From Gemmatimonadaceae bacterium (lineage in GTDB: Bacteria; Gemmatimonadota; Gemmatimonadetes; Gemmatimonadales; Gemmatimonadaceae): 64,000 nt of DNA. A program made the translations under genes and the position numbers. Below, piece by piece: positions 23,239 through 33,641 of this stretch (position 1 is its first letter; every line of letters begins with the position of its first letter). The DNA lies in the NCBI GenBank assembly GCA_019186945.1, contig JABAQJ010000007.1, forward strand, positions 1 through 64,000. The letters run 5' to 3'. The notes beneath the pieces are model-generated. The model had not been told where the DNA came from and did no database searches. It saw only the letters and a list, made by a program, of their open reading frames with translations.

Positions 23239-23733
23239 GTGATACTGCTTGGACGGCGGCTGCGTGGCTCGGCGCGTTGTATCCTGGCGCTGGTTGCTGT
23301 GAACATGGCGATCACACCGGGTACGCTTCATGGCCAGGAGAAGTCTGCAGGGCAGCGCGTGTTCGAAACCATGTGTGTGGCGTGCCATACCATCGGCGGT
23401 GGCGTGCGCATAGGCCCGGATCTGCAGGGAGTCACCGAACGCCGCACCCGGGACTGGATGGTCCGGTTCATCAGCGATCCGGATGCCATGGTTGCTGCTG
23501 GCGACTCGATTGCCGTGGCGAATTTGGCGCAGTACGGCGTGCGGATGCCGAAGTTTCCGCTCACGGCGCCGCAGGTAGAGGCGGTGGTCGACTACCTTGG
23601 CGGCGGAGTCGCGGCTCCTGCCGGGCGGCCGGCGGAGTACATACCGACACTCGTTCTGGCCGCAATCGTTGCAGCTGCTTTCACCCTGATCGCCCTGCGC
23701 CAGGGAACCAAACGGATGGAGACTGTGGCATGA
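23239..23733 (+). CDS. Membrane-anchored monoheme c-type cytochrome of the nitrate reductase cluster
   Basis: 164 residues. An N-terminal signal/anchor is followed by a heme c motif CVACH (residues 46-50). A likely Met axial ligand is in VRMPKFPLT (Met103), and a C-terminal transmembrane helix spans about 136-153. The GTG at 23239 has a GGAGG seven bases upstream, which decides the start. The stop overlaps the narG start by four bases (ATGA). A cytochrome leading a nar operon recalls, in position only, NarC of Thermus, which has more hemes. It could exchange electrons between the quinol pool or periplasmic donors and NarI; that is inference. Confidence 0.88.
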   Translation: MILLGRRLRGSARCILALVAVNMAITPGTLHGQEKSAGQRVFETMCVACHTIGGGVRIGPDLQGVTERRTRDWMVRFISDPDAMVAAGDSIAVANLAQYGVRMPKFPLTAPQVEAVVDYLGGGVAAPAGRPAEYIPTLVLAAIVAAAFTLIALRQGTKRMETVA

Positions 23734-26700
23734 AGAGCCGATGGTTCAAGATCAGCGATGAGTCCCGTTCCTGGGAGGACTTTTATCGCAGCCGCTGGTC
23801 CTACGACTACAGCGTGCGTACCGGCCATGGCGTGAACTGCTCCATGGCGTGCAGCTGGGAAGTGTTCGTCAAGGACGGTCTGATCTGCTGGGAGTTGCAG
23901 AAGACTGACTACCCGCAGATCGACGCTGACATACCGAACGTGGAGCCGCGCGGATGCCAGCGTGGCGTGACGGCGTCGTGGTATCCCTACAGTCCGTTGC
24001 GTCCCAAGTACCCCTACGTGCGCAAGATTCTCTGGGACTTCTATCAGGAGGAGCGCAGCAAGGGCAAGGATCCTGTCGAGGCCTGGGCCGCCGTTGCCGA
24101 GGACGAGGCGCGATCGAAGGCCTACAAGTCGGCGCGCGGAAAGGCAGGATGGAAGCGCGTCTCCTGGGATGACGCCACCGAACTCGCCGCTGCGGCGCAG
24201 ATCCACACGATCAGGAAGTACGGGCCCGATCATATAGCCAACTTCTCGCCGATCCCGGCGATGAGCTTGGGCAGCTTCATTTCCGGGCACAGGTACAACA
24301 ATCTGATCGGCGGCATCTACTGCAGCTACTACGAGTGGTATCACGACCTGCCGCACGTGTCGCCGTCGATGTGGGGCGACCAGACCGAGAACTGCGAGAG
24401 TTCGGACTGGTACCAGGGCACGTACTGGATCGTCGCCGGCAGCAACATCAACATGACGCGCACGGCCGACGCGCATTTCCTGCCCGAAGCGAAGTACCGC
24501 GGGACCAAGGTCGTGGTCGTCTCCCCGAACTACTCCGACGTCGCCAAGTACTCCGACCTGTGGGTGCCGGTGGTTCCCGGAAGCGACGGCGCCTACTTCA
24601 TGGCCTGCATCCACGTCATCCTCAAGGAGTTCTACGCCGACAGGGAGTCTCCCTACTTCACGGACTACGTCAAACGGTATACGAACCTGCCGTTCCTCGT
24701 CATGCTGGATCCGGACGGCGATGCGTACCAGATGGGCCGGTTCGTGCGAGCGTCGGACCTGGAGCAATACGCTGCCGAGGAGAACGCGGACTGGAAGTTG
24801 ATCATGGCGGATGCGGCCGGGTCGCTTCACGTACCGACGGGTTCGATCGGGTTCCGCTGGGAGAAGGAGCCCACCGGGAACTGGAATCTCCAGCTCAAGA
24901 ACGCGGTGACGCGGGAGGATTTCGATCCGCTGCTGTCGTTTCTTGGGGCGTCCGGCCAACGGGCGATGGTATCGTTCTCCGACTTTACCGACACGTTCTC
25001 GATCGTCACTGGTCAGACGCCGGGGCGGGGGAAGAAAGCGGTGGAGCTGCGCCGCGAAGTGCCGGCGCGCCGCATTCGCACGCGCGACGGGAAGGAGATC
25101 CTCGTTACCACGGCGTTCGATCTGTTGATGGCCCAGGCCGGTGTGTCGCGCGGGCTTGGCGGAGACTACCCGAAGGATTTCGACGATCCGAAGCCATATA
25201 CACCGGCCTGGCAGGAGGCGCAAACGGGGGTGAGCCGTCAGCTCGTCATCCAGGTGGCGCGCGAATTCGCCGAGAACGCCGAGAAGACGAACGGGAAGTC
25301 GCTGATCATCACCGGCCCCGGGATTCAGCACTTCTACCACGGCGCATCGCTCTACTACCGCAGCCAGGCGGTGATGTTGGCCCTTTGCGGCTGCAACGGC
25401 AAGCAGGGCGGGAACTTCAACCACTACGTGGGAACGCAGCACACGCGTCTGAATGCGGCGTTCGTGAACCTGAGCGGGGCGCTGGACTGGAATCGCCCGC
25501 CACGCATCATGAACTCCACGTCGCTTTGGTATTTCCAGACGGGGCAATGGCGCTACGACGGAATGGCGCTGGATACGCAGTGGGCAACCGGGGCGAGGAA
25601 GCTTCCGGCGTACAATCACGCTGCCGACATGAACGCGCTGGCGGTGCGCCTGGGCTGGCTTCCCTTTTTCCCGCAGGTGGACAAGAAGAACCCGCTCCGG
25701 CTCTATGAGGAAGCGGTAGCCGCCGGCTGCAAGACGGACGACGAAGTAAAGGCATGGGTGCTGGAGCAGTTCAAGTCGGGCAAGGCGAACTTTGCCATCC
25801 ACGACGTCGATGCACCGGAGAACCGGCTCAAGGTACTGACTGTCTACCGGGGGAATCTCATCGGCACGAGCATGCGGGGTCACGAGCTCACGCTCAAGCA
25901 CTTCCTTGGCACGCACGACAACTCGTTGTGGGAAAACGAGCCGGCGAAGGGAATGGTGAACGAGATCGCGTGGCACGAGACGTCTCCCGTCGGCAAGCTG
26001 GATCTGCTGGTGAACGTGAACTTTCGCATGGACTCGTCGGCCAACTACTCGGACATCGTTCTGCCAGCGGCCTTCTGGTACGAGAAGCACGATGTCACGT
26101 TCGGCGACATGCACACGTTCGTGCACCCGCTGACGCCAGCGACGAACCCGCCATGGGAAGCGAAGCACGACTGGGACGCGTTCCGGATGATCGCTCGCAA
26201 GTTCTCCGACCTGGCGAAGAAGTACTTCCCCAAGCCGGTGAAGGATGTGGTAATGAAGGCGCACTGGATGGACAGCCCCGACCAGCTGGCGCAGCCGCTT
26301 GGCGAGGTGCGGGACTGGCGCAAGGGCGACGTGGAGCCGGTTCCCGGGAAGTCCTTTCCCGGCATTGCCATCGTTGAGCGTGACTATACGAAGGTGTACG
26401 ACCAGATGGTCTCGCTTGGGCCGCTCGTCTGTCAGCCCAAGGGTTATGGCTCCAAGGGCCAATATGCCGACCTCACGCCGATCGTCGAGGAGGAACTCAA
26501 GCATAACGAGGCTCTCACGGTCAAGGACAATCGCGTCACCTTCGAACGCGCCGATCAGTTGTGCGAGCTGATCTGCTCGATATCACCCGAGCTCAATGGC
26601 CGGCTGGCCCACATGATCTTCAAGGAAATGGAGAAGAAGGTTGGGCTGCCGCTGGCCGACATGGTGGAAGCGGTGAAGGAACGGCGGGTGCACTACAAGG

Positions 26701-27485
26701 ATCTGGTTTCGCAGCCCCGCCGGATCCATACGACGCCGCAGTGGAGTTCGATGCTGTTCGATCCAGCGACAGGCAAGCAGCGGACGTTTGCGCCATTCAC
26801 GATGAACGTGGAACGACTCAAGCCGTGGCACACGCTGTCGGGGAGGCAGGAGGTCTACTACGACCACCAGGGCATCCGGGAACTGGGCGAGGCGCTGCCG
26901 ACGAACAAGCCACCGCTGGACATGGTGGCGATCGGAGACGTGCGGCTCGACAAGGCGGAGGCCAAGTCAAAGGTCTTCAGGTTCATCACGCCACACGGGA
27001 AATGGCAGATCCACAGTTCGTTCCGTGACCATTGGCCGATGATGCACATGTCGCGTGGCGGACCGACGGTGTGGATACATCCGGACGATGCCGCGGAGAT
27101 CGAGGTCAGGGACAACGACTGGGTCGAGATGTACTGCGAGAACGGAATCGAGGTAGTCCGCGCCGTGGTGAGTCATCAGGTGCCGCGGAACATGGCGATC
27201 ACCTACCACCAGGTAGAGCGTCACGTCAACGTGCCGTTCTCGCCTCTGGCGCGAAAGCATCGGCGGTCGGATCTGCGAGGCGGCAACAACAACGCCACCA
27301 CGCGGATCCTGATGAACCCGCACACGATGATTGGCGGCTATGCGCAGTTCAGCTACTACATCAACTATTGGGGGACGAGCCCGTCGGAGCGCGATCACGC
27401 GGTGCTCATCCGCAAGATGCCCTTGACCGCCTCGGCTGGGGTCGTGTACCGCGAGGAAGAACTCGCCAGTCTGCCCTCGGCCTAG
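23730..27485 (+). CDS. narG: Respiratory nitrate reductase, molybdopterin alpha subunit
   Basis: 1251 residues, essentially the length of E. coli NarG. It reduces nitrate to nitrite at a bis-MGD molybdenum centre. The FS0 cluster ligands are His33, Cys37, Cys41 and Cys76, with the same 35-residue gap between the last two as in E. coli. The molybdenum-coordinating Asp is in CESSDWYQ (Asp226). There is no Tat signal, so the active site should face the cytoplasm. The ATG at 23730 overlaps the cytochrome stop. Flanking residues differ somewhat from the E. coli and Thermus enzymes (for example HDLPHVSPSMWGDQTENC), suggesting a divergent NarG lineage. Confidence 0.97.
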   Translation: MKSRWFKISDESRSWEDFYRSRWSYDYSVRTGHGVNCSMACSWEVFVKDGLICWELQKTDYPQIDADIPNVEPRGCQRGVTASWYPYSPLRPKYPYVRKILWDFYQEERSKGKDPVEAWAAVAEDEARSKAYKSARGKAGWKRVSWDDATELAAAAQIHTIRKYGPDHIANFSPIPAMSLGSFISGHRYNNLIGGIYCSYYEWYHDLPHVSPSMWGDQTENCESSDWYQGTYWIVAGSNINMTRTADAHFLPEAKYRGTKVVVVSPNYSDVAKYSDLWVPVVPGSDGAYFMACIHVILKEFYADRESPYFTDYVKRYTNLPFLVMLDPDGDAYQMGRFVRASDLEQYAAEENADWKLIMADAAGSLHVPTGSIGFRWEKEPTGNWNLQLKNAVTREDFDPLLSFLGASGQRAMVSFSDFTDTFSIVTGQTPGRGKKAVELRREVPARRIRTRDGKEILVTTAFDLLMAQAGVSRGLGGDYPKDFDDPKPYTPAWQEAQTGVSRQLVIQVAREFAENAEKTNGKSLIITGPGIQHFYHGASLYYRSQAVMLALCGCNGKQGGNFNHYVGTQHTRLNAAFVNLSGALDWNRPPRIMNSTSLWYFQTGQWRYDGMALDTQWATGARKLPAYNHAADMNALAVRLGWLPFFPQVDKKNPLRLYEEAVAAGCKTDDEVKAWVLEQFKSGKANFAIHDVDAPENRLKVLTVYRGNLIGTSMRGHELTLKHFLGTHDNSLWENEPAKGMVNEIAWHETSPVGKLDLLVNVNFRMDSSANYSDIVLPAAFWYEKHDVTFGDMHTFVHPLTPATNPPWEAKHDWDAFRMIARKFSDLAKKYFPKPVKDVVMKAHWMDSPDQLAQPLGEVRDWRKGDVEPVPGKSFPGIAIVERDYTKVYDQMVSLGPLVCQPKGYGSKGQYADLTPIVEEELKHNEALTVKDNRVTFERADQLCELICSISPELNGRLAHMIFKEMEKKVGLPLADMVEAVKERRVHYKDLVSQPRRIHTTPQWSSMLFDPATGKQRTFAPFTMNVERLKPWHTLSGRQEVYYDHQGIRELGEALPTNKPPLDMVAIGDVRLDKAEAKSKVFRFITPHGKWQIHSSFRDHWPMMHMSRGGPTVWIHPDDAAEIEVRDNDWVEMYCENGIEVVRAVVSHQVPRNMAITYHQVERHVNVPFSPLARKHRRSDLRGGNNNATTRILMNPHTMIGGYAQFSYYINYWGTSPSERDHAVLIRKMPLTASAGVVYREEELASLPSA

Positions 27486-27496
27486 GAGGAACGAGC

Positions 27497-29059
27497 ATGA
27501 GAGTCAAGGCACAGAACAGCATGACGTTCAACCTCGAGAAATGCATCGGTTGCAACACATGCACGGTCGCCTGCAAGAACGTCTGGACGAATCGCGAGGG
27601 CGCCGAGTACATGTGGTGGAACAACGTGGAGACGAAGCCGGGAATCGGATATCCGAAGCAGTGGGAGAACCAGGAGCGGTGGCGAGGCGGCTGGGTGAGG
27701 AAGGGCGACGGGCTTACGCTCCGCTACGGCAGCAAACCGTACCAGCTCGCCAACCTGTTCTTCAACCCGCACATGCCGGAGATGAAGGACTACTATGGCG
27801 GTGACGTCTACACGTTCACCTACGACGACCTGCACGACCCGGAGCAGCAGAAGCAGCAGCCCGTTGCCCGGCCGAAGTCCATGGTCACAGAGGAAGAGGA
27901 CATCCCCATCACGTGGGGAGTGAACTGGGAAGACAACGCGGGCGGCACCAATGTGACCGGCAAGCTCGACCTGAACTTCAAGGGGATGAGCGAGCAGGAG
28001 CGGGATGCGTTCCTGCGGTTCCGGGATGTCTTCTACTTCTACCTCCCTCGCATCTGCAATCACTGCGTCAATCCCGCGTGCGTCGCCGCCTGTCCTTCGG
28101 GGGCGGCTTACAAGCGCGAGGAGGATGGCGTAGTGCTGATCGACCAGAACCGGTGTCGCAACTGGCGGTACTGCATCTCGTCGTGTCCGTACAAGAAGCC
28201 CTACTACAACTGGGTGTCGGGCAAGATGGAGAAGTGCATCCTCTGCTATCCCCGTGTGGAGCATGGGTTGCCGCCGGTGTGCTTCCACTCCTGTGTGGGC
28301 AAGATCCGATCATTCGGTGTGACATTCTATGACATGGACCGAGTGCCGGATGCGGCGATGGTGGACGACAAGGATCTGGTACGCGCGCATCGTGACGTGA
28401 TTCTGGATCCGTCGGATCCGGCGGTCGTGGCCAAGGCGCGGGAAAGCGGGTTGAGCGACGACTGGATCGATGCGGCGCAGCGTTCGCCGGTTTACAAGCT
28501 CTTCAAGCGCTGGGAACTGGCGCTTCCGTTGCACCCCGAGTTCCGGACGCTGCCCAGTCTCTTCTACATCCCGCCCCTGAGCCCGATCACGACCAGCGCG
28601 GGCTCGATCTCGCCGGATGAGAAAGACGTGTTCGACATGGATCAACCGAAGGGTGTGCTCATCGATCCGGACGAGATCGACAGGTTCAGAGTGCCGATCA
28701 CCTACCTGGCGAACCTGTTCGCTGCTGGGAATCCCGAGCCGGTACGCGTATCGCTGCGTCGCCAACTGGCGGTACGTCTCTACGAACGCAGCGTGCGGGT
28801 GGACAAGCGACCGAATGTGGACGTCCTCAAGCGAGTAGGGCTCACGGAAGACGACGCCAAAGGTATCGTCCGGGCTCTGTCGCTGGCGTTCTACAACGAA
28901 CGATTCGTGATCCCGACGACGAAACGAGAGGATGCGGACATCAGCCCGTACACGGAGCGTGGCTTCGCGGGCTATTCGGCGATGGGTCCGCTCACTCCCC
29001 TCAAGCGACGCAAGAGCTATTTCCCGGCACCGCACGATCCGGCGAAGGACTATGAGTAG
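27497..29059 (+). CDS. narH: Nitrate reductase iron-sulfur beta subunit
   Basis: 520 residues. It carries electrons from NarI heme to NarG through one [3Fe-4S] and three [4Fe-4S] clusters. The first ligand group is Cys16, 19, 22 and 26, the same positions as in E. coli. A second group is in CNHCVNPACVAACP; a third contains CRNWRYCISSCPYKK, where Trp replaces a Cys as in the [3Fe-4S] site of NarH; a fourth is CILCYPRVEHG. An AGGAGGA at 27484-27490 sets the ATG at 27497, 11 bases after the narG stop. Confidence 0.97.
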   Translation: MRVKAQNSMTFNLEKCIGCNTCTVACKNVWTNREGAEYMWWNNVETKPGIGYPKQWENQERWRGGWVRKGDGLTLRYGSKPYQLANLFFNPHMPEMKDYYGGDVYTFTYDDLHDPEQQKQQPVARPKSMVTEEEDIPITWGVNWEDNAGGTNVTGKLDLNFKGMSEQERDAFLRFRDVFYFYLPRICNHCVNPACVAACPSGAAYKREEDGVVLIDQNRCRNWRYCISSCPYKKPYYNWVSGKMEKCILCYPRVEHGLPPVCFHSCVGKIRSFGVTFYDMDRVPDAAMVDDKDLVRAHRDVILDPSDPAVVAKARESGLSDDWIDAAQRSPVYKLFKRWELALPLHPEFRTLPSLFYIPPLSPITTSAGSISPDEKDVFDMDQPKGVLIDPDEIDRFRVPITYLANLFAAGNPEPVRVSLRRQLAVRLYERSVRVDKRPNVDVLKRVGLTEDDAKGIVRALSLAFYNERFVIPTTKREDADISPYTERGFAGYSAMGPLTPLKRRKSYFPAPHDPAKDYE

Positions 29060-29636
29060 CGCATCCATCACCGGAGAGGACTGCTTCGCCACGCTGGCCG
29101 AACTTTGGTGCAGTCCGCAGGACGTGGAGCAGACGGAGCTGCGCGAGCGGGCTGAGCAACTGGCCGAGGCCTTGTCGGAACGCCACCCGGAGGTGGCCGC
29201 GGCACTGGGTCGGTTTCTTGCCGATCCCTTGGCAGAGGAGGACTACGTCGAGTTGTTCGAGCTGGATCCAAAGTGCGCCCTTTACCTGGGGAGTCACACG
29301 TTCGAAGAACCCAAGACCTGTGCACAAAGCGGAGTGTCCGACCGCAACGGGTACATGATCGAGTTGCAGGGGATATACCGTCATTTTGGCTTGGCGCCCG
29401 ACCCCACCGAGTTGCCGGACTATCTGCCGTTGATGCTGGAATGCGTGGCGTTGACGGACGGCCGGGCGGATCCCGTTCGGAGCAAGCTCATTTGCGATTT
29501 CATCCTGCCCTTCCTGCCGCCAATGCGGGGCCGACTCGAGGAGTTGCAGAGCTCCTACGCCAGCCTGCTCGACGCGACGGAACGGCTGTTACAACACGAG
29601 GTCGAAGCCCAACCAACAGGGGATAACCGTGTTTGA
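29052..29636 (+). CDS. narJ: Nitrate reductase assembly chaperone
   Basis: 194 residues of the NarJ/TorD family. It binds apo-NarG and helps insert the molybdenum cofactor before membrane assembly; it is not part of the mature enzyme. The acidic helical pattern and ELFELDPKCALYLGSHTF fit NarJ. It overlaps the end of narH by eight bases and the start of narI by eight, indicating translational coupling that would keep subunit and chaperone amounts matched. Confidence 0.92.
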   Translation: MSSASITGEDCFATLAELWCSPQDVEQTELRERAEQLAEALSERHPEVAAALGRFLADPLAEEDYVELFELDPKCALYLGSHTFEEPKTCAQSGVSDRNGYMIELQGIYRHFGLAPDPTELPDYLPLMLECVALTDGRADPVRSKLICDFILPFLPPMRGRLEELQSSYASLLDATERLLQHEVEAQPTGDNRV

Positions 29637-30327
29637 GAACTTCTTCTTCGTCGGCCTGCCGTACGTCACTCTGTTGCTGCTGGTAGGCGGCTCGATCTAT
29701 CGGGCATTCACAGGAAGCAAGACGCAATTCCGCGGTCCCATGGCATGGAGCGCTCGTGGCGATTTCATGTGGACGACGCGCTCGACCGGTTTCTTCGGAC
29801 GGGCGTCTGTTGGGCCATCGGCGCTGAGTCTGCATTGGGGGCTGATCATCCTCTTTTTCGCCCACGTGGCCGGATTCGTGGGTGGTGCCTACGGCTGGGC
29901 GTCGTGGGTGGAGTACTTCCGGTGGACGGGACTCTTTGGCGGTGTGCTTGTGTTCTACGGTCTCGTCTGGGCGCTGGTACGCCGCATTCGATCGCCACAG
30001 CTTCGAGCGATGAGCACCTTTGACGACTATGCCGTGCTTGTGCTCCTCGTGCTGATCGCTGGCTTGGGGCTGTGGAACCCGATAGCCGAGTTTGCGTTTG
30101 GCGTGTCGTACTCGGTGGGACCGTGGTTCGCCGGGATATTCCAGCTGCGTCCGGACGCCTCGCTCGTTGCCGGGGCGCCGTTGGTGGTCCGCCTGCATAT
30201 GATCCTGGCAATGCTCTTCCTGTGCTACCTGCCGTTCACGAAGCTCGTGCACGCGTTCAGCTATCCGTGGGGGTACATGTCCCGGCCCTACATCTCGATG
30301 CGAGGCTACTTCGGGCTGAAGAAGTAG
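29629..30327 (+). CDS. narI: Nitrate reductase cytochrome b gamma subunit
   Basis: 232 residues with five hydrophobic segments. It oxidises quinol at the periplasmic side and passes electrons through two b hemes to NarH. The four heme ligands are His69 and His79 (10 apart) and His190 and His208 (18 apart), the same spacings as His56/66 and 187/205 of E. coli NarI. The start is GTG, preceded by AGGGGA, and overlaps narJ. The C-terminal sequence YPWGYMSRPY is typical of NarI. Confidence 0.96.
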   Translation: MFENFFFVGLPYVTLLLLVGGSIYRAFTGSKTQFRGPMAWSARGDFMWTTRSTGFFGRASVGPSALSLHWGLIILFFAHVAGFVGGAYGWASWVEYFRWTGLFGGVLVFYGLVWALVRRIRSPQLRAMSTFDDYAVLVLLVLIAGLGLWNPIAEFAFGVSYSVGPWFAGIFQLRPDASLVAGAPLVVRLHMILAMLFLCYLPFTKLVHAFSYPWGYMSRPYISMRGYFGLKK

Positions 30328-30360: not shown

Positions 30361-31878
30361 ATGGCCGAGCGGGTTCGCGCCGCGACGACGCTGGCGGCCA
30401 ACACGACCGCCTTCATGGTGTGCTTCGTGGTATGGGTGCAATACGGCGTCGTGATCACGTTCCTGGTGCAGCGGCGCGCGTATCCGTTCACGCCGTCGGA
30501 GGCGGGCTGGCTGATCGGTCTGCCGGTTCTGACCGGCGCCCTGACGCGCCTCCCGGTCGGCTTGCTCGCGGATCGGTTTGGCGGTCGTCCGGTGATGACG
30601 GGAATCCTCCTCTGGTCGGCAGCAGCAACCTGGCTATCAGGGTACGCCGACAGTTTCTGGGGATTCGTTGCGAGCGGACTGACCTTTGGGGTTGCGGGGG
30701 CGTCGTTTGCCGCCGGAGCGGCGTACACGGCGGTGTGGTTCCCGCCCGAGCGCCAAGGGACAGCACTCGGGATATTTGGCGTCGGGAATGCCGGTGCGGC
30801 GCTCAGCACGCTCATTGCGCCGCGGGTACTGACGGCGCTGACTGAGGGTGGGACACAGCTCGATCGCTGGCGTCTGCTTCCGAGATACTACGCGCTGGCG
30901 GTTCTGATCACCGCCTTGGTCTACTGGTTGGTTACGACGCCACGCCGGCCGCCCGAGGAGGGCCGTCGCTCGCTGCGGGATCGGCTGGCGCCGATGTCGT
31001 CCATGCGTGTATGGCGGTTTGGCCTTTACTACTTCCTGTTCTTTGGCGGCTTTGTCGCGCTCGCGCAGTGGCTGGTGCCGTATTACGTGAACGTGTACCT
31101 CACCAGCGTCGTCGCGGCAGGAGCGCTCGCGTCGCTCTTCTCGCTTCCGTCGGCGCTGTTCCGGTTTCTTGGCGGATGGCTCTCCGATCGGCTGGGCGCA
31201 CGAACCGTTATGTACTGGGTGTTGAGCCTGTGTCTGGTCCTTGTCGTACTGCTGTTCCCGCCGCGGGTAGAGCTACAGGCACCGGGATCGGGTGTGGCGG
31301 CCCGCCGGCCGGGCGTCGTGGAGCGAGTGAATGCGGGGGAGATCGTGGTGGGCTCCGACCGTTACGTGCTCCAGGAGTCTGGCCAGGGGGAGGGGCGGGT
31401 TCGATTCGGTATTCACCGGGATGACGAGGGTTTCCTGCTGCTACCGACCACCACGTTCCACCAGGTACCCGTGGTGCAACCCGGGGACACGATCGCAAGC
31501 GGTCAGCTACTGGCTCGCGGGGTAACGCTCCTGTATTTCCAAGCCAATCGAACGATCTTCACGACGATCGTGCTGCTCCTTGGCGTCACGTTAGGCATCG
31601 GAGCCGGTGCCGTGCTCAAACACGTGACGGCCTACTTTCCGGGAAGAGTCGGTCTGGTCGGTGGGATCGTGAGCATGCTGGGCGCGCTGGGCGGGTTCTG
31701 TTTTCCGATCCTGTTCGGGTACATGTTGAACGCCACCGGGATCTGGACTACAGCGTGGATGCTCCTGGCGGCGGTGACCGTGATCTGCATCGTGTGGATG
31801 CATGCGATCGTCCGGCGGATGATGGCATCGGCCGCGCCGGCGGCGATCCGCGAAGTCGAGGAGCGGTCCCGGACATGA
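30361..31878 (+). CDS. narK: NarK-type nitrate/nitrite transporter with an inserted soluble domain
   Basis: 505 residues of the NNP branch of the major facilitator superfamily. The substrate arginines are in place (Arg63 in ALTRLPVGLLADR and Arg268 in LFRFLGGWLSDR), and both nitrate-signature glycine motifs are seen (GVGNAGAAL near 140-148 and GALGGFCFP near 441-449). Unusually, about 95 residues (roughly 301-397) are inserted between two membrane helices; this part is hydrophilic and beta-rich, ending in VQPGDTIASGQLLARG, which resembles half of a lipoyl/barrel-sandwich fold. It follows narI by 33 bases and overlaps the next gene by four. Confidence 0.93.
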   Translation: MAERVRAATTLAANTTAFMVCFVVWVQYGVVITFLVQRRAYPFTPSEAGWLIGLPVLTGALTRLPVGLLADRFGGRPVMTGILLWSAAATWLSGYADSFWGFVASGLTFGVAGASFAAGAAYTAVWFPPERQGTALGIFGVGNAGAALSTLIAPRVLTALTEGGTQLDRWRLLPRYYALAVLITALVYWLVTTPRRPPEEGRRSLRDRLAPMSSMRVWRFGLYYFLFFGGFVALAQWLVPYYVNVYLTSVVAAGALASLFSLPSALFRFLGGWLSDRLGARTVMYWVLSLCLVLVVLLFPPRVELQAPGSGVAARRPGVVERVNAGEIVVGSDRYVLQESGQGEGRVRFGIHRDDEGFLLLPTTTFHQVPVVQPGDTIASGQLLARGVTLLYFQANRTIFTTIVLLLGVTLGIGAGAVLKHVTAYFPGRVGLVGGIVSMLGALGGFCFPILFGYMLNATGIWTTAWMLLAAVTVICIVWMHAIVRRMMASAAPAAIREVEERSRT

Positions 31879-32939
31879 TTGCGTCGCGCGGTGGCGTACG
31901 CGCGATTGTCCTGCGGGCGGTGGACACGTTCACGCCCGCAGGTTTCGCGATGGTCATGGCGACCGGCATCGTCTCGTCGGCGGCGCACGAACTGGGCATG
32001 CGGTCCCTGGGACTGGTGCTATTTGTCCTGGCGGTTGCGGCCTACGTCATCCTGTGGGCGCTTGGCGTCGCCTGCCTGATACGCCATCCGCGCCGCCTGC
32101 TTGGCGACTTGGTTCGCCACACAGGTGCGTTCGCGTTCTTCACGACAGTTGCAGCTACCTGCGTCCTGGGAAGCGGAGCGATTGCCCTGTTCGATGCCTA
32201 TCGTATTGCCACCGGGTTGTGGGCGTTCGGGCTCGTACTTTGGGTGACGCTGACGTACACCGTGTTCACCGGACTCACCATTCGCGAGGACAAGCCCACG
32301 CTTGCGCAGGGCATCAGCGGAGCATGGCTCCTGGCAGTGGTCTCGACGCAGGCGATCGCTCTGCTTTCAGCGAACCTGGCCACGCACGCCGGCGCATCCA
32401 AGCTGCCAATGAACTTCTTCGCGCTATCGATGTGGCTTTGGGGAGGAATGCTCTACATCTGGATGATCTCCCTGATCTTCTACCGGTATGCGTTCTTCGA
32501 GTTTGCGCCGGGGGATCTGACGCCGCCCTACTGGATCAATATGGGCGCCATGGCGATTTCCAGTCTGACTGGCGCGGTGCTCGTGGCCAATACTCCTGAC
32601 GCTCCCTTTCTACGGTCGACGCTGCCCTTCCTGAAGGGGTTCACGGTGTTCTACTGGGCTACCGGAACGTGGTGGTTGCCGATGCTGGCCATCCTTGCGA
32701 TGTGGCGGCATGTGTGGAAGCGGTTCCCGTTGCGGTATGACCCGCTGTACTGGGGTGCGGTGTTTCCTCTGGGGATGTACACGGCGTGCACCCTTGCCAT
32801 GTCACGTGCCCTGGAGTTGCCGTTTCTGGAGTTCGTTCCCCGGTATTTCGTCTTCATCGCGCTGGCAGCGTGGCTGGCGACCTTCGTCGGCCTTGTATCC
32901 AGCATCGCGCGTGGGGCGCAGGATGTCGTTGCTACCTAA
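31875..32939 (+). CDS. SLAC1/TehA-family anion channel
   Basis: 354 residues with about ten hydrophobic helices in the TehA/SLAC1 arrangement, starting TPAGFAMVMATGIVSSAA, the typical first-helix signature. SLAC1-family members conduct anions, including nitrate in plants, while bacterial TehA is named for tellurite resistance. The ATG overlaps the narK stop (ATGA), so the two transport proteins are translationally coupled. A role in nitrate/nitrite flux is inferred from that context. The stop codon lies within a CCTAACG motif. Confidence 0.88.
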   Translation: MIASRGGVRAIVLRAVDTFTPAGFAMVMATGIVSSAAHELGMRSLGLVLFVLAVAAYVILWALGVACLIRHPRRLLGDLVRHTGAFAFFTTVAATCVLGSGAIALFDAYRIATGLWAFGLVLWVTLTYTVFTGLTIREDKPTLAQGISGAWLLAVVSTQAIALLSANLATHAGASKLPMNFFALSMWLWGGMLYIWMISLIFYRYAFFEFAPGDLTPPYWINMGAMAISSLTGAVLVANTPDAPFLRSTLPFLKGFTVFYWATGTWWLPMLAILAMWRHVWKRFPLRYDPLYWGAVFPLGMYTACTLAMSRALELPFLEFVPRYFVFIALAAWLATFVGLVSSIARGAQDVVAT

Positions 32940-33123: not shown

Positions 33124-33167
33124 TATTGCGCGGTAGACGGCGGGTGCACCCGGAACACGAGACGACT

Positions 33168-33641
33168 GTGCTGTACTCTTCGACCTGCGAATACGCCGTT
33201 CGTGCGCTGACCTTTCTTGCGTCGGCGCCTCCCCAAGCCCTTGTCAGGCTGACGGTCATCGCCGAGGCGGAGGATCTTCCGGCGCCTTATCTCGGAAAGG
33301 TGTTCCGTGACCTCAGCCGGGCGGGAGTCCTGCACTCCGCCAAGGGTCCGCGCGGCGGTTATCGTCTGGCGCGGTCGGCGGATTCGATCACTTTGCTGGA
33401 TGTGAAGCGGGTGATCGACGGTGTCGTGGATCTGGAACGGTGCGCGGTTGGGCTGGGGCAGTGCTCGGACCTGATGCCATGTCCGCAGCATGTCACGTTC
33501 AAGCCGCTCCGGGAGGCTATTCGGCGATACCTCGCAACCACCACGCTGTCCGACATGGCGGCCGCGCTGGAAAGGAAGCGAGGGCGGAAGGGCGCAGCGG
33601 CGAGCACACGGACATCACGAGCGAAACGCACTCGACTCTGA
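33168..33641 (+). CDS. Rrf2-family iron-sulfur transcriptional regulator
   Basis: 157 residues. The N-terminal winged helix starts LYSSTCEYAVRALTFLA, and the recognition/wing segment includes GPRGGYRLAR. Three cysteines at 92, 99 and 105 match the cluster-binding region of IscR/NsrR-type members, so it probably senses Fe-S status, NO or oxygen through a cluster. The GTG at 33168 is preferred because it yields the standard Rrf2 N-terminus; the frame is open 42 bases further upstream. It is encoded 228 bases after the SLAC1 gene on the nar strand, and control of the nar operon is likely but unproven. A basic Arg/Lys/Ser-rich tail follows the domain. Confidence 0.9.
   Translation: MLYSSTCEYAVRALTFLASAPPQALVRLTVIAEAEDLPAPYLGKVFRDLSRAGVLHSAKGPRGGYRLARSADSITLLDVKRVIDGVVDLERCAVGLGQCSDLMPCPQHVTFKPLREAIRRYLATTTLSDMAAALERKRGRKGAAASTRTSRAKRTRL

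What the first reader, a model, noticed from the sequence alone, without database searches (positions are those of the whole stretch)
30361..31878. NarK transporter carrying a ~95-residue soluble domain between helices
Residues ~301-397 sit between two membrane helices of a nitrate transporter. They are hydrophilic, mostly beta-prone and end VQPGDTIASGQLLARG, resembling a half motif of lipoyl/barrel-sandwich domains. Characterised NarK and NasA have only a short loop there. This could be a regulatory ligand domain or an oligomer or NarGHI contact.
Basis: partly seen in the sequence, partly recalled or inferred. Interest (0 to 1): 0.6.

Follow-up and report, generated by a model that had tools for sequence, protein, structure and literature searches.

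The report
Nitrate transporter with polymerase-type periplasmic domain
A nitrate-uptake protein found in many bacterial phyla carries, on the outer side of the membrane, a small folded beta domain whose closest relative is a piece of the RNA polymerase beta subunit; its job there is unknown, and it probably clamps or docks the transporter.

Summary
In detail: window 31261-31548 (residues 301-396) is a real, conserved domain between TM9 and TM10 of a NarK-family transporter directly downstream of narGHJI. It is a barrel-sandwich hybrid. By sequence profile, whole-genome search and predicted fold, its nearest relative is one domain of RNA polymerase beta (E. coli RpoB ~713-788, the 'beta-bD1' HABAS domain), collinear over 77 columns. 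Lipoyl and RnfC domains match only locally. Positive-inside counts and the NarK fold put it in the periplasm, so it cannot contact cytoplasmic NarG/NarH. All 83 aligned relatives carry it. In a tree of 193 NNP proteins the 90 carriers form one clade, sister to insert-less proteobacterial NarK1; the NarK2-type neighbours lack it. All 25 Bacteroidota genomes with a match carry it; of 57 Pseudomonadota genomes only the chosen centre does. The next gene is often NarK2 or a SLAC1 channel. A 2024 paper names an unspecified 'major facilitator superfamily transporter' among HABAS proteins, so the pairing is not wholly new; I found no NarK-specific account in nine answered searches of the held library. 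Function is inferred: a rigid periplasmic clamp on TM9/TM10, possibly docking a partner.

The parts
30361..31878 (+). NarK1-type NNP nitrate transporter with the insert (505 aa)
31198..31251 (+). TM9 (residues 280-297), ends just before the insert
   Evidence: model; coordinates
31261..31548 (+). Insert, residues 301-396: barrel-sandwich hybrid (HABAS) domain of the RpoB beta-bD1 kind
31267..31374 (+). First half of the domain (residues 303-338, four strands; G309, G311, G318 and V320 conserved)
31375..31446 (+). Variable loop (residues 339-362), low model confidence; holds the RFGI...EGF stretch seen only in loci with SLAC1 downstream
31447..31539 (+). Second half of the domain (residues 363-393)
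31468..31518 (+). GD-box-like motif (residues 370-386, PVVQPGDTIASGQLLAR)
   Evidence: sequence against the pattern printed in PMC11515920 section 2.5
31537..31548 (+). FQAN motif (residues 393-396) where the domain enters TM10; each residue kept in 98-101 of 101 carriers and not shared by insert-less NarK1
31549..31635 (+). TM10 (residues 397-425)
   Evidence: model
30547..30549 (+). R63, aligned with E. coli NarK Arg (TM2), kept in 101 of 101 carriers
   Evidence: substrate role recalled
31162..31164 (+). R268, aligned with E. coli NarK Arg (TM8), kept in 101 of 101 carriers
   Evidence: substrate role recalled
23730..27485 (+). narG (TIGR01580, over cut-off)
27497..29059 (+). narH (TIGR01660, over cut-off)
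29064..29636 (+). narJ (TIGR00684, over cut-off)
29629..30327 (+). narI (Pfam Nitrate_red_gam E 1.6e-40; TIGR00351 under cut-off)
31872..32939 (+). SLAC1/TehA-family anion channel, directly downstream of narK
   Evidence: Pfam SLAC1 E 3.2e-49; tdt E 1.1e-20, under cut-off

Best explanation
WHAT IT IS (shown by comparison; about 0.93): a barrel-sandwich hybrid domain, nearest to the beta-bD1 (HABAS) domain of RNA polymerase beta, inserted in the TM9-TM10 loop of a NarK1-type nitrate transporter, probably once (about 0.75), in a clade spread over many phyla but not shared by ordinary proteobacterial NarK1. WHERE (inferred from positive-inside counts and fold; about 0.9): in the periplasm. HOW IT WORKS (inferred; about 0.4): both ends join the helices with hardly any linker, through an invariant P301 and the clade-specific FQAN motif, so the domain must move as one body with TM9 and TM10. 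It would act as a rigid periplasmic clamp at the outer mouth of the transporter's C bundle, setting how the outer gate opens, and would offer a surface on which the co-encoded nitrite-exit partner (NarK2 antiporter, or the SLAC1-type channel here) or another nar component docks, so that nitrate entry and nitrite exit sit together.
For: Insert profile vs PDB sequences: best hit RpoB E 5.6e-5, and RpoB fills the top 34 rows. Of 83 inserts, 62 match RpoB model PRK00405 (best 4.7e-6) and 51 TIGR02013. hhalign to 30 RpoB domains: probability 97.6, 77 columns; four shuffled or reversed controls at most 1.2. Foldseek: 49 of the 50 rows shown are RNA polymerase beta chains and one is a beta' chain, best E 5.2e-3, none under 0.001. 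VIA: all 50 rows shown are RNA polymerase beta, Z 7.9-9.1, 62-66 residues, rmsd 1.1-2.4 A. Whole genomes: 244 of 298 hit; the top 9 hits are the insert, and 11 of 11 further hits that I compared lie inside rpoB genes. Periplasm: loops on the N-in side carry 1.3-4.8 K+R per sequence, the opposite loops 0-0.8. Substrate residues kept. FQAN in 98-101 of 101 carriers per residue. Carriers one clade of 90; SH-aLRT 89.5, UFBoot 82 in a smaller tree. Next gene: NarK2 45, SLAC1 16, neither 20, too little room 1, of 82; among 247 Bacteroidota genomes the four SLAC1 genes at 57-62% identity all lie beside an insert-bearing narK. TM10/TM11 bending drives NarK's transport change (passages of PMC4432589). 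Proteobacterial NarK1 is a nitrate/proton symporter (passages of PMC5217062).
Against: No structure, binding or transport datum exists for any carrier. 20 of 82 loci have neither NarK2 nor SLAC1 next to the gene. NarK1/NarK2 pairs exist in Proteobacteria without the insert, so the domain is not needed for pairing there. The loop motif that seemed to mark SLAC1 partners is missing in 5 of 22 SLAC1-adjacent members. The window's copy lacks several family-conserved residues (K380 is S, W367 is H, E369 is V). Support for carrier monophyly is moderate (0.68 in FastTree). The TM10/TM11 bending seen in E. coli NarK is on the cytosolic halves, not at the periplasmic end where the domain sits. No complex was predicted.
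Confidence: 0.5

Rival explanations
1. The domain is a docking module for a periplasmic or membrane partner that changes with the gene neighbourhood, and it can be exchanged between transporters. In the window protein the transporter body is Gemmatimonadota-like while the insert is like that of the SLAC1-linked, mostly Bacteroidota clade.
For: Transporter columns reject the SLAC1-clade placement (AU p 0.022) and insert columns reject the Gemmatimonadota placement (AU p 0.016) on the same 27 taxa. Mean identity of the window to the Gemmatimonadota set 0.63 (TM1-9) but 0.48 in the insert; to the SLAC1 set 0.51 and 0.52. Loop motif in 17 of 22 SLAC1-adjacent and 0 of 101 other members.
Against: Without the loop the insert test is p 0.077. 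With a 40-taxon set the AU test for the insert gave p 0.029 but SH p 0.071; a quick tree search for the transporter body gave p 0.088. Five SLAC1-adjacent members lack the motif. The outgroup sets were chosen after seeing the loop. Convergence or a slow-evolving loop could mimic a swap.
Confidence: 0.25
2. The domain is a structural brace or targeting aid only (a built-in accessory domain that stabilises the transporter in the membrane) with no partner and no gating role.
For: Variable middle loop, no conserved ligand or metal residues other than H390, 56 of 83; no obligatory neighbour.
Against: Strict conservation of the junction FQAN motif and of P301, G309, G318, P362, G387 goes beyond a passive spacer.
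Confidence: 0.2
3. The domain is an anion funnel: conserved basic residues (380, 381 and 386) gather nitrate at the outer mouth.
For: K or R at 380 in 95%, at 381 in 80%, at 386 in 92% of 83.
Against: The insert as a whole is not basic (10.3 K+R vs 11.0 D+E per sequence) and the window has S380 and G381.
Confidence: 0.1
4. The domain is a lipoyl- or biotin-type carrier or a small-ligand sensor.
For: Shared barrel-sandwich fold; Biotin_lipoyl reached by 19 of 83 members at E up to 1, best 0.0046.
Against: The only column with Lys in more than 70% is residue 380, on the way into the last strand after the GD box, and the window has Ser there; profile match to Biotin_lipoyl covers 16 columns.
Confidence: 0.04

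Closest known systems
RNA polymerase beta subunit, beta-bD1 HABAS domain (E. coli RpoB ~715-790; PMC11515920 Table 1 seen)
   Same: Collinear over 77 profile columns, 26-40% identity in structure alignments, same GD-box-like motif, Q-x-P-x-V lead-in
   Different: There it is a cytoplasmic part of RNA polymerase between other beta domains; here it is tied to two membrane helices, in the periplasm, with its own FQAN junction
HABAS domain in a 'major facilitator superfamily transporter protein' (PMC11515920, section 2.5, read)
   Same: Same domain class in an MFS transporter; probably, not certainly, this clade
Proteobacterial NarK1 (first half of the Paracoccus NarK1-NarK2 fusion, L159)
   Same: Sister clade (support 1.0 for the joint clade); same substrate Arg and signature residues; tandem or fused with NarK2
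   Different: No insert; the TM9-TM10 loop measures 19 residues in most sequences by the columns
E. coli NarK (4u4w, 4iu9, 4jre)
   Same: Transporter fold, Z 43.9 over 365-381 residues, 25-26% identity
   Different: NarK2/antiporter side of the family; no insert
RnfC N-terminal barrel-sandwich hybrid (PF13375)
   Same: Fold class; 39 of 83 inserts hit at E up to 1, best 1.2e-4
   Different: Profile alignment covers only 27 columns, probability 17.6

Membership tests
NNP (nitrate/nitrite porter) family of the MFS | 12-helix NarK fold | tested here: met
   Z 43.9 to NarK structures
NNP (nitrate/nitrite porter) family of the MFS | Substrate arginines in TM2 and TM8 and Gly/Asn-rich nitrate signatures | tested here: met
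   R63, R268, G142, G145, G441, G444, G445 in 101 of 101 carriers; N143 in 98. Roles recalled; signature 2 glycines named in PMC4432589
NCBIfam TIGR00886 (NarK family nitrate/nitrite MFS transporter) | Score over the curated cut-off 311.7 | tested here: not met
   174 bits; all 83 members match but the best E is 5.3e-60, so probably all score under it; I do not file it as a TIGR00886 member
NarK1 type | Groups with Paracoccus NarK1 rather than NarK2 or E. coli NarK | tested here: met
   118-tip clade of carriers plus proteobacterial NarK1, support 1.0
NarK1 type | Nitrate/proton symport | not testable with these tools
   -
Barrel-sandwich hybrid / HABAS (CATH 2.40.50.100) | Fold | tested here: met
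   Foldseek and VIA against RpoB; Foldseek's best E is only 5.2e-3, probability 1.00
Barrel-sandwich hybrid / HABAS (CATH 2.40.50.100) | HHalign probability over 70% to known HABAS domains (the paper's criterion) | tested here: met
   97.6 to RpoB beta-bD1; its second criterion, BLAST+ p under 1e-9, was not run
Barrel-sandwich hybrid / HABAS (CATH 2.40.50.100) | GD-box-like motif | tested here: met
   residues 370-386, by eye, first aliphatic position taken by P370
Lipoyl/biotinyl carrier domain | Modified lysine in the hairpin between the halves | tested here: not met
   no conserved Lys in the middle of the domain
Lipoyl/biotinyl carrier domain | Profile match over the domain | tested here: not met
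   16 of 75 columns, probability 70.6; no Pfam hit for the window insert

The most novel reading that the evidence does not exclude
A copy of the RNA polymerase beta-bD1 domain was captured once into the periplasmic TM9-TM10 loop of an ancestral NarK1 and became an exchangeable partner-specificity module: its loop matches the nitrite-exit partner encoded next door (NarK2 antiporter or SLAC1 channel), and the window's protein has exchanged this module together with its partner.
Probability: 0.15. Interest if true: 0.8.

Novelty: new variant of a known kind. Interest (0 to 1): 0.5.

Why it matters
Nitrate transporters of respiratory nar operons are known almost only from Proteobacteria and Thermus, whose NarK proteins lack this domain. 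A large share of nar operons in other phyla use a NarK1 with a folded periplasmic domain, so the E. coli and Paracoccus picture of nitrate entry is incomplete. It also gives a clear case of an RNA-polymerase-type domain working outside the cytoplasm, and a testable handle on how nitrate entry is tied to nitrite exit, including a SLAC1 channel that stands in NarK2's place here.

Tried and rejected
Lipoyl/biotin carrier: rejected. RnfC-type domain: fold class only. Contact with NarG/NarH: set aside on topology. The idea that the long 2.1 kb matches were larger inserts: wrong; the protein ORFs are of the usual length and the match runs into a second NarK. The idea that the NarK2 neighbours carry the same insert: wrong; their extra 59-70 residues lie in the central TM6-TM7 region. 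The loop motif as a strict SLAC1 marker: first 16 of 17 vs 0 of 66; a further set of 40 agreed when only same-strand neighbours were counted, but SLAC1 genes on the opposite strand or upstream raised the exceptions to 5 of 22.

Trees: a 40-taxon AU script was cut by time, insert part finished, transporter part not; a larger IQ-TREE run timed out; one tree included three NarK2 fragments by mistake and was redone without them. Rows dropped: near-duplicates above 93% and sequences under 65% occupancy before the 193-taxon tree. The root of the tree is not informative about the joint clade.

Papers: ten searches used, plus one rejected for its wording. PMC6394727, PMC7438415, PMC4432589, PMC5217062: passages only. 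No search listing named a NarK with an inserted domain.

Full report
Observation. The ORF at 30361-31878 is a 505-residue NarK-family protein. The model has twelve helices and six beta strands at 303-393. The gene follows narGHJI and is followed by a SLAC1-family channel gene at 31872-32939 and an Rrf2-family regulator. The genome is probably Gemmatimonadota: the closest order-level relatives correspond to contigs titled Gemmatimonadetes (L002 = L022, L003 = L006 by identical hits).

What the insert is. The insert alone matches RpoB models of NCBIfam (E 4.7e-5 for the window; 62 of 83 family members hit PRK00405 at E up to 1, best 4.7e-6). Its profile finds RpoB first in the PDB (5.6e-5), with a lipoyl domain only at 0.14. 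In 298 genomes of the same phylum the profile finds the nine inserted transporters (E 5.7e-29 or better) and then hits of E 1.5e-8 to 1e-3, which in the part of the list shown lie in open frames of 806-1613 residues; 11 of 11 that I compared lie inside the rpoB genes (the list is cut). hhalign: RpoB domain 97.6% over 77 columns at 30% identity, landing at columns 790-872 of full-length RpoB; Biotin_lipoyl 70.6% over 16 columns; RnfC_N 17.6% over 27; four shuffled or reversed controls against each target at most 1.2%. The insert model alone has pLDDT 82.6. Foldseek and VIA put RNA polymerase beta first; VIA only re-ranks Foldseek's own matches, and Foldseek's best E-value is 5.2e-3. The matched RpoB stretch is the beta-bD1 HABAS domain of PMC11515920 (E. 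coli-type residues 715-790).

Topology. Loops that should be cytoplasmic average 1.3-4.8 K+R per sequence, those on the other side 0-0.8 (83 sequences). TM9-TM10 lies on the poor, periplasmic side. Arginines and nitrate-signature residues aligned with E. coli NarK are kept in all 101 carriers examined, N143 in 98.

Distribution. All 83 aligned relatives carry the insert (biased set). In sampled phyla, genomes with a family match at the stated E: own phylum 10 of 298, of which 9 with insert (E <= 1e-40); Pseudomonadota 57 of 398, one with insert, which is the centre that I chose because it carried it (the other 56 matches end before the insert, and the 29 fetched as loci L196-L224 were included in the length count, where no sequence lies between 34 and 83 residues); Planctomycetota 33 of 294, 15 with and 18 without; Bacteroidota 25 of 296, all with. 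MAG binning can misplace single cases.

Phylogeny. Among 193 NNP sequences the 90 carriers form one clade (0.68) inside a 118-tip clade with proteobacterial NarK1 (1.0). In 58 taxa carriers have SH-aLRT/UFBoot 89.5/82 and proteobacterial NarK1 84.1/93. Insert-less relatives on both sides favour one gain; loss in Proteobacteria is not excluded.

Neighbourhood. Of 82 loci (window excluded): narI directly upstream in 47, none in 33, too little room in 2; downstream NarK2 in 45, SLAC1 in 16, neither in 20, too little room in 1. A search for the window's SLAC1 in 247 Bacteroidota genomes gave four matches at 57-62% identity, and by coordinates all four lie next to an insert-bearing narK (two on the same strand, two facing it); two weaker ones (36%) were not followed. 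I found no paper on this pairing. SLAC1-family channels are known to pass nitrate and chloride (recalled), so a channel may replace NarK2 as the exit for nitrite: inference.

Module swap. For the window's protein the transporter columns group with Gemmatimonadota (SLAC1 clade rejected, AU 0.022) and the insert columns with the SLAC1-linked clade (Gemmatimonadota rejected, AU 0.016; without the loop 0.077). Earlier runs were weaker: 0.029 with SH 0.071 for the insert, and 0.088 for the transporter under a quick search. The groups were chosen after seeing the loop, so I treat this as a lead. Loop motif: 17 of 22 SLAC1-adjacent members and 0 of 101 others.

Mechanism. Shown by comparison: fold class, nearest relative, clade limits, kept substrate residues. 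Inferred: periplasmic side, nitrate/proton symport (from NarK1, PMC5217062 passages), rigid coupling to TM9/TM10 (short junctions and FQAN), effect on gating (TM10/TM11 move in NarK, PMC4432589 passages, though that bending is cytosolic), docking of a partner. None of the last steps has been tested.

Novelty. PMC11515920 (sections 2.4, 2.5 and passages seen) states that HABAS insertions occur in a 'major facilitator superfamily transporter protein' and does not name NarK or nitrate in its main text. Hence new variant of a known kind.

Noticed in passing
window 31872-32939: A SLAC1/TehA-family channel sits where NarK2 usually follows this narK. In 247 Bacteroidota genomes its four closest homologues (57-62%) all lie next to an insert-bearing narK.
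   Followed up: partly
L018:9548-11146, L076:9490-11094, L048:4134-5786, L079:9463-11133: The neighbouring NarK2-type proteins carry 59-70 extra residues in the central TM6-TM7 region relative to E. coli NarK; L027 and L083 do not.
   Followed up: partly
L046:11133-11849 and 13 other loci: A cytochrome c7-type multihaem protein follows the narK pair in 14 of 80 loci.
   Followed up: partly
window 23730-30327: The window's nar genes are only about 45% identical in NarG to those of most carriers, but L060 NarG is 84% and L008 NarH 76% identical: different nar operon lineages share the same transporter type.
   Followed up: no
L050:7367-7807 and 7 other loci: A ~147-aa protein without a Pfam match lies just upstream of narK in 8 loci, seven of them SLAC1-linked plus L049 likewise.
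   Followed up: no
L044:1464-3134 and 8 other loci: A ~557-aa protein without a Pfam match recurs in 9 loci, mostly Melainabacteria/Obscuribacterales nar clusters.
   Followed up: no
all 83 members of A1: The whole clade matches TIGR00886 with best E 5.3e-60, the window at 174 bits against a cut-off of 311.7, so automatic annotation probably does not name these proteins NarK.
   Followed up: partly
window 33126-33641: An Rrf2-family regulator gene lies downstream of SLAC1; NsrR, an NO sensor of this family, is among its weaker matches.
   Followed up: no
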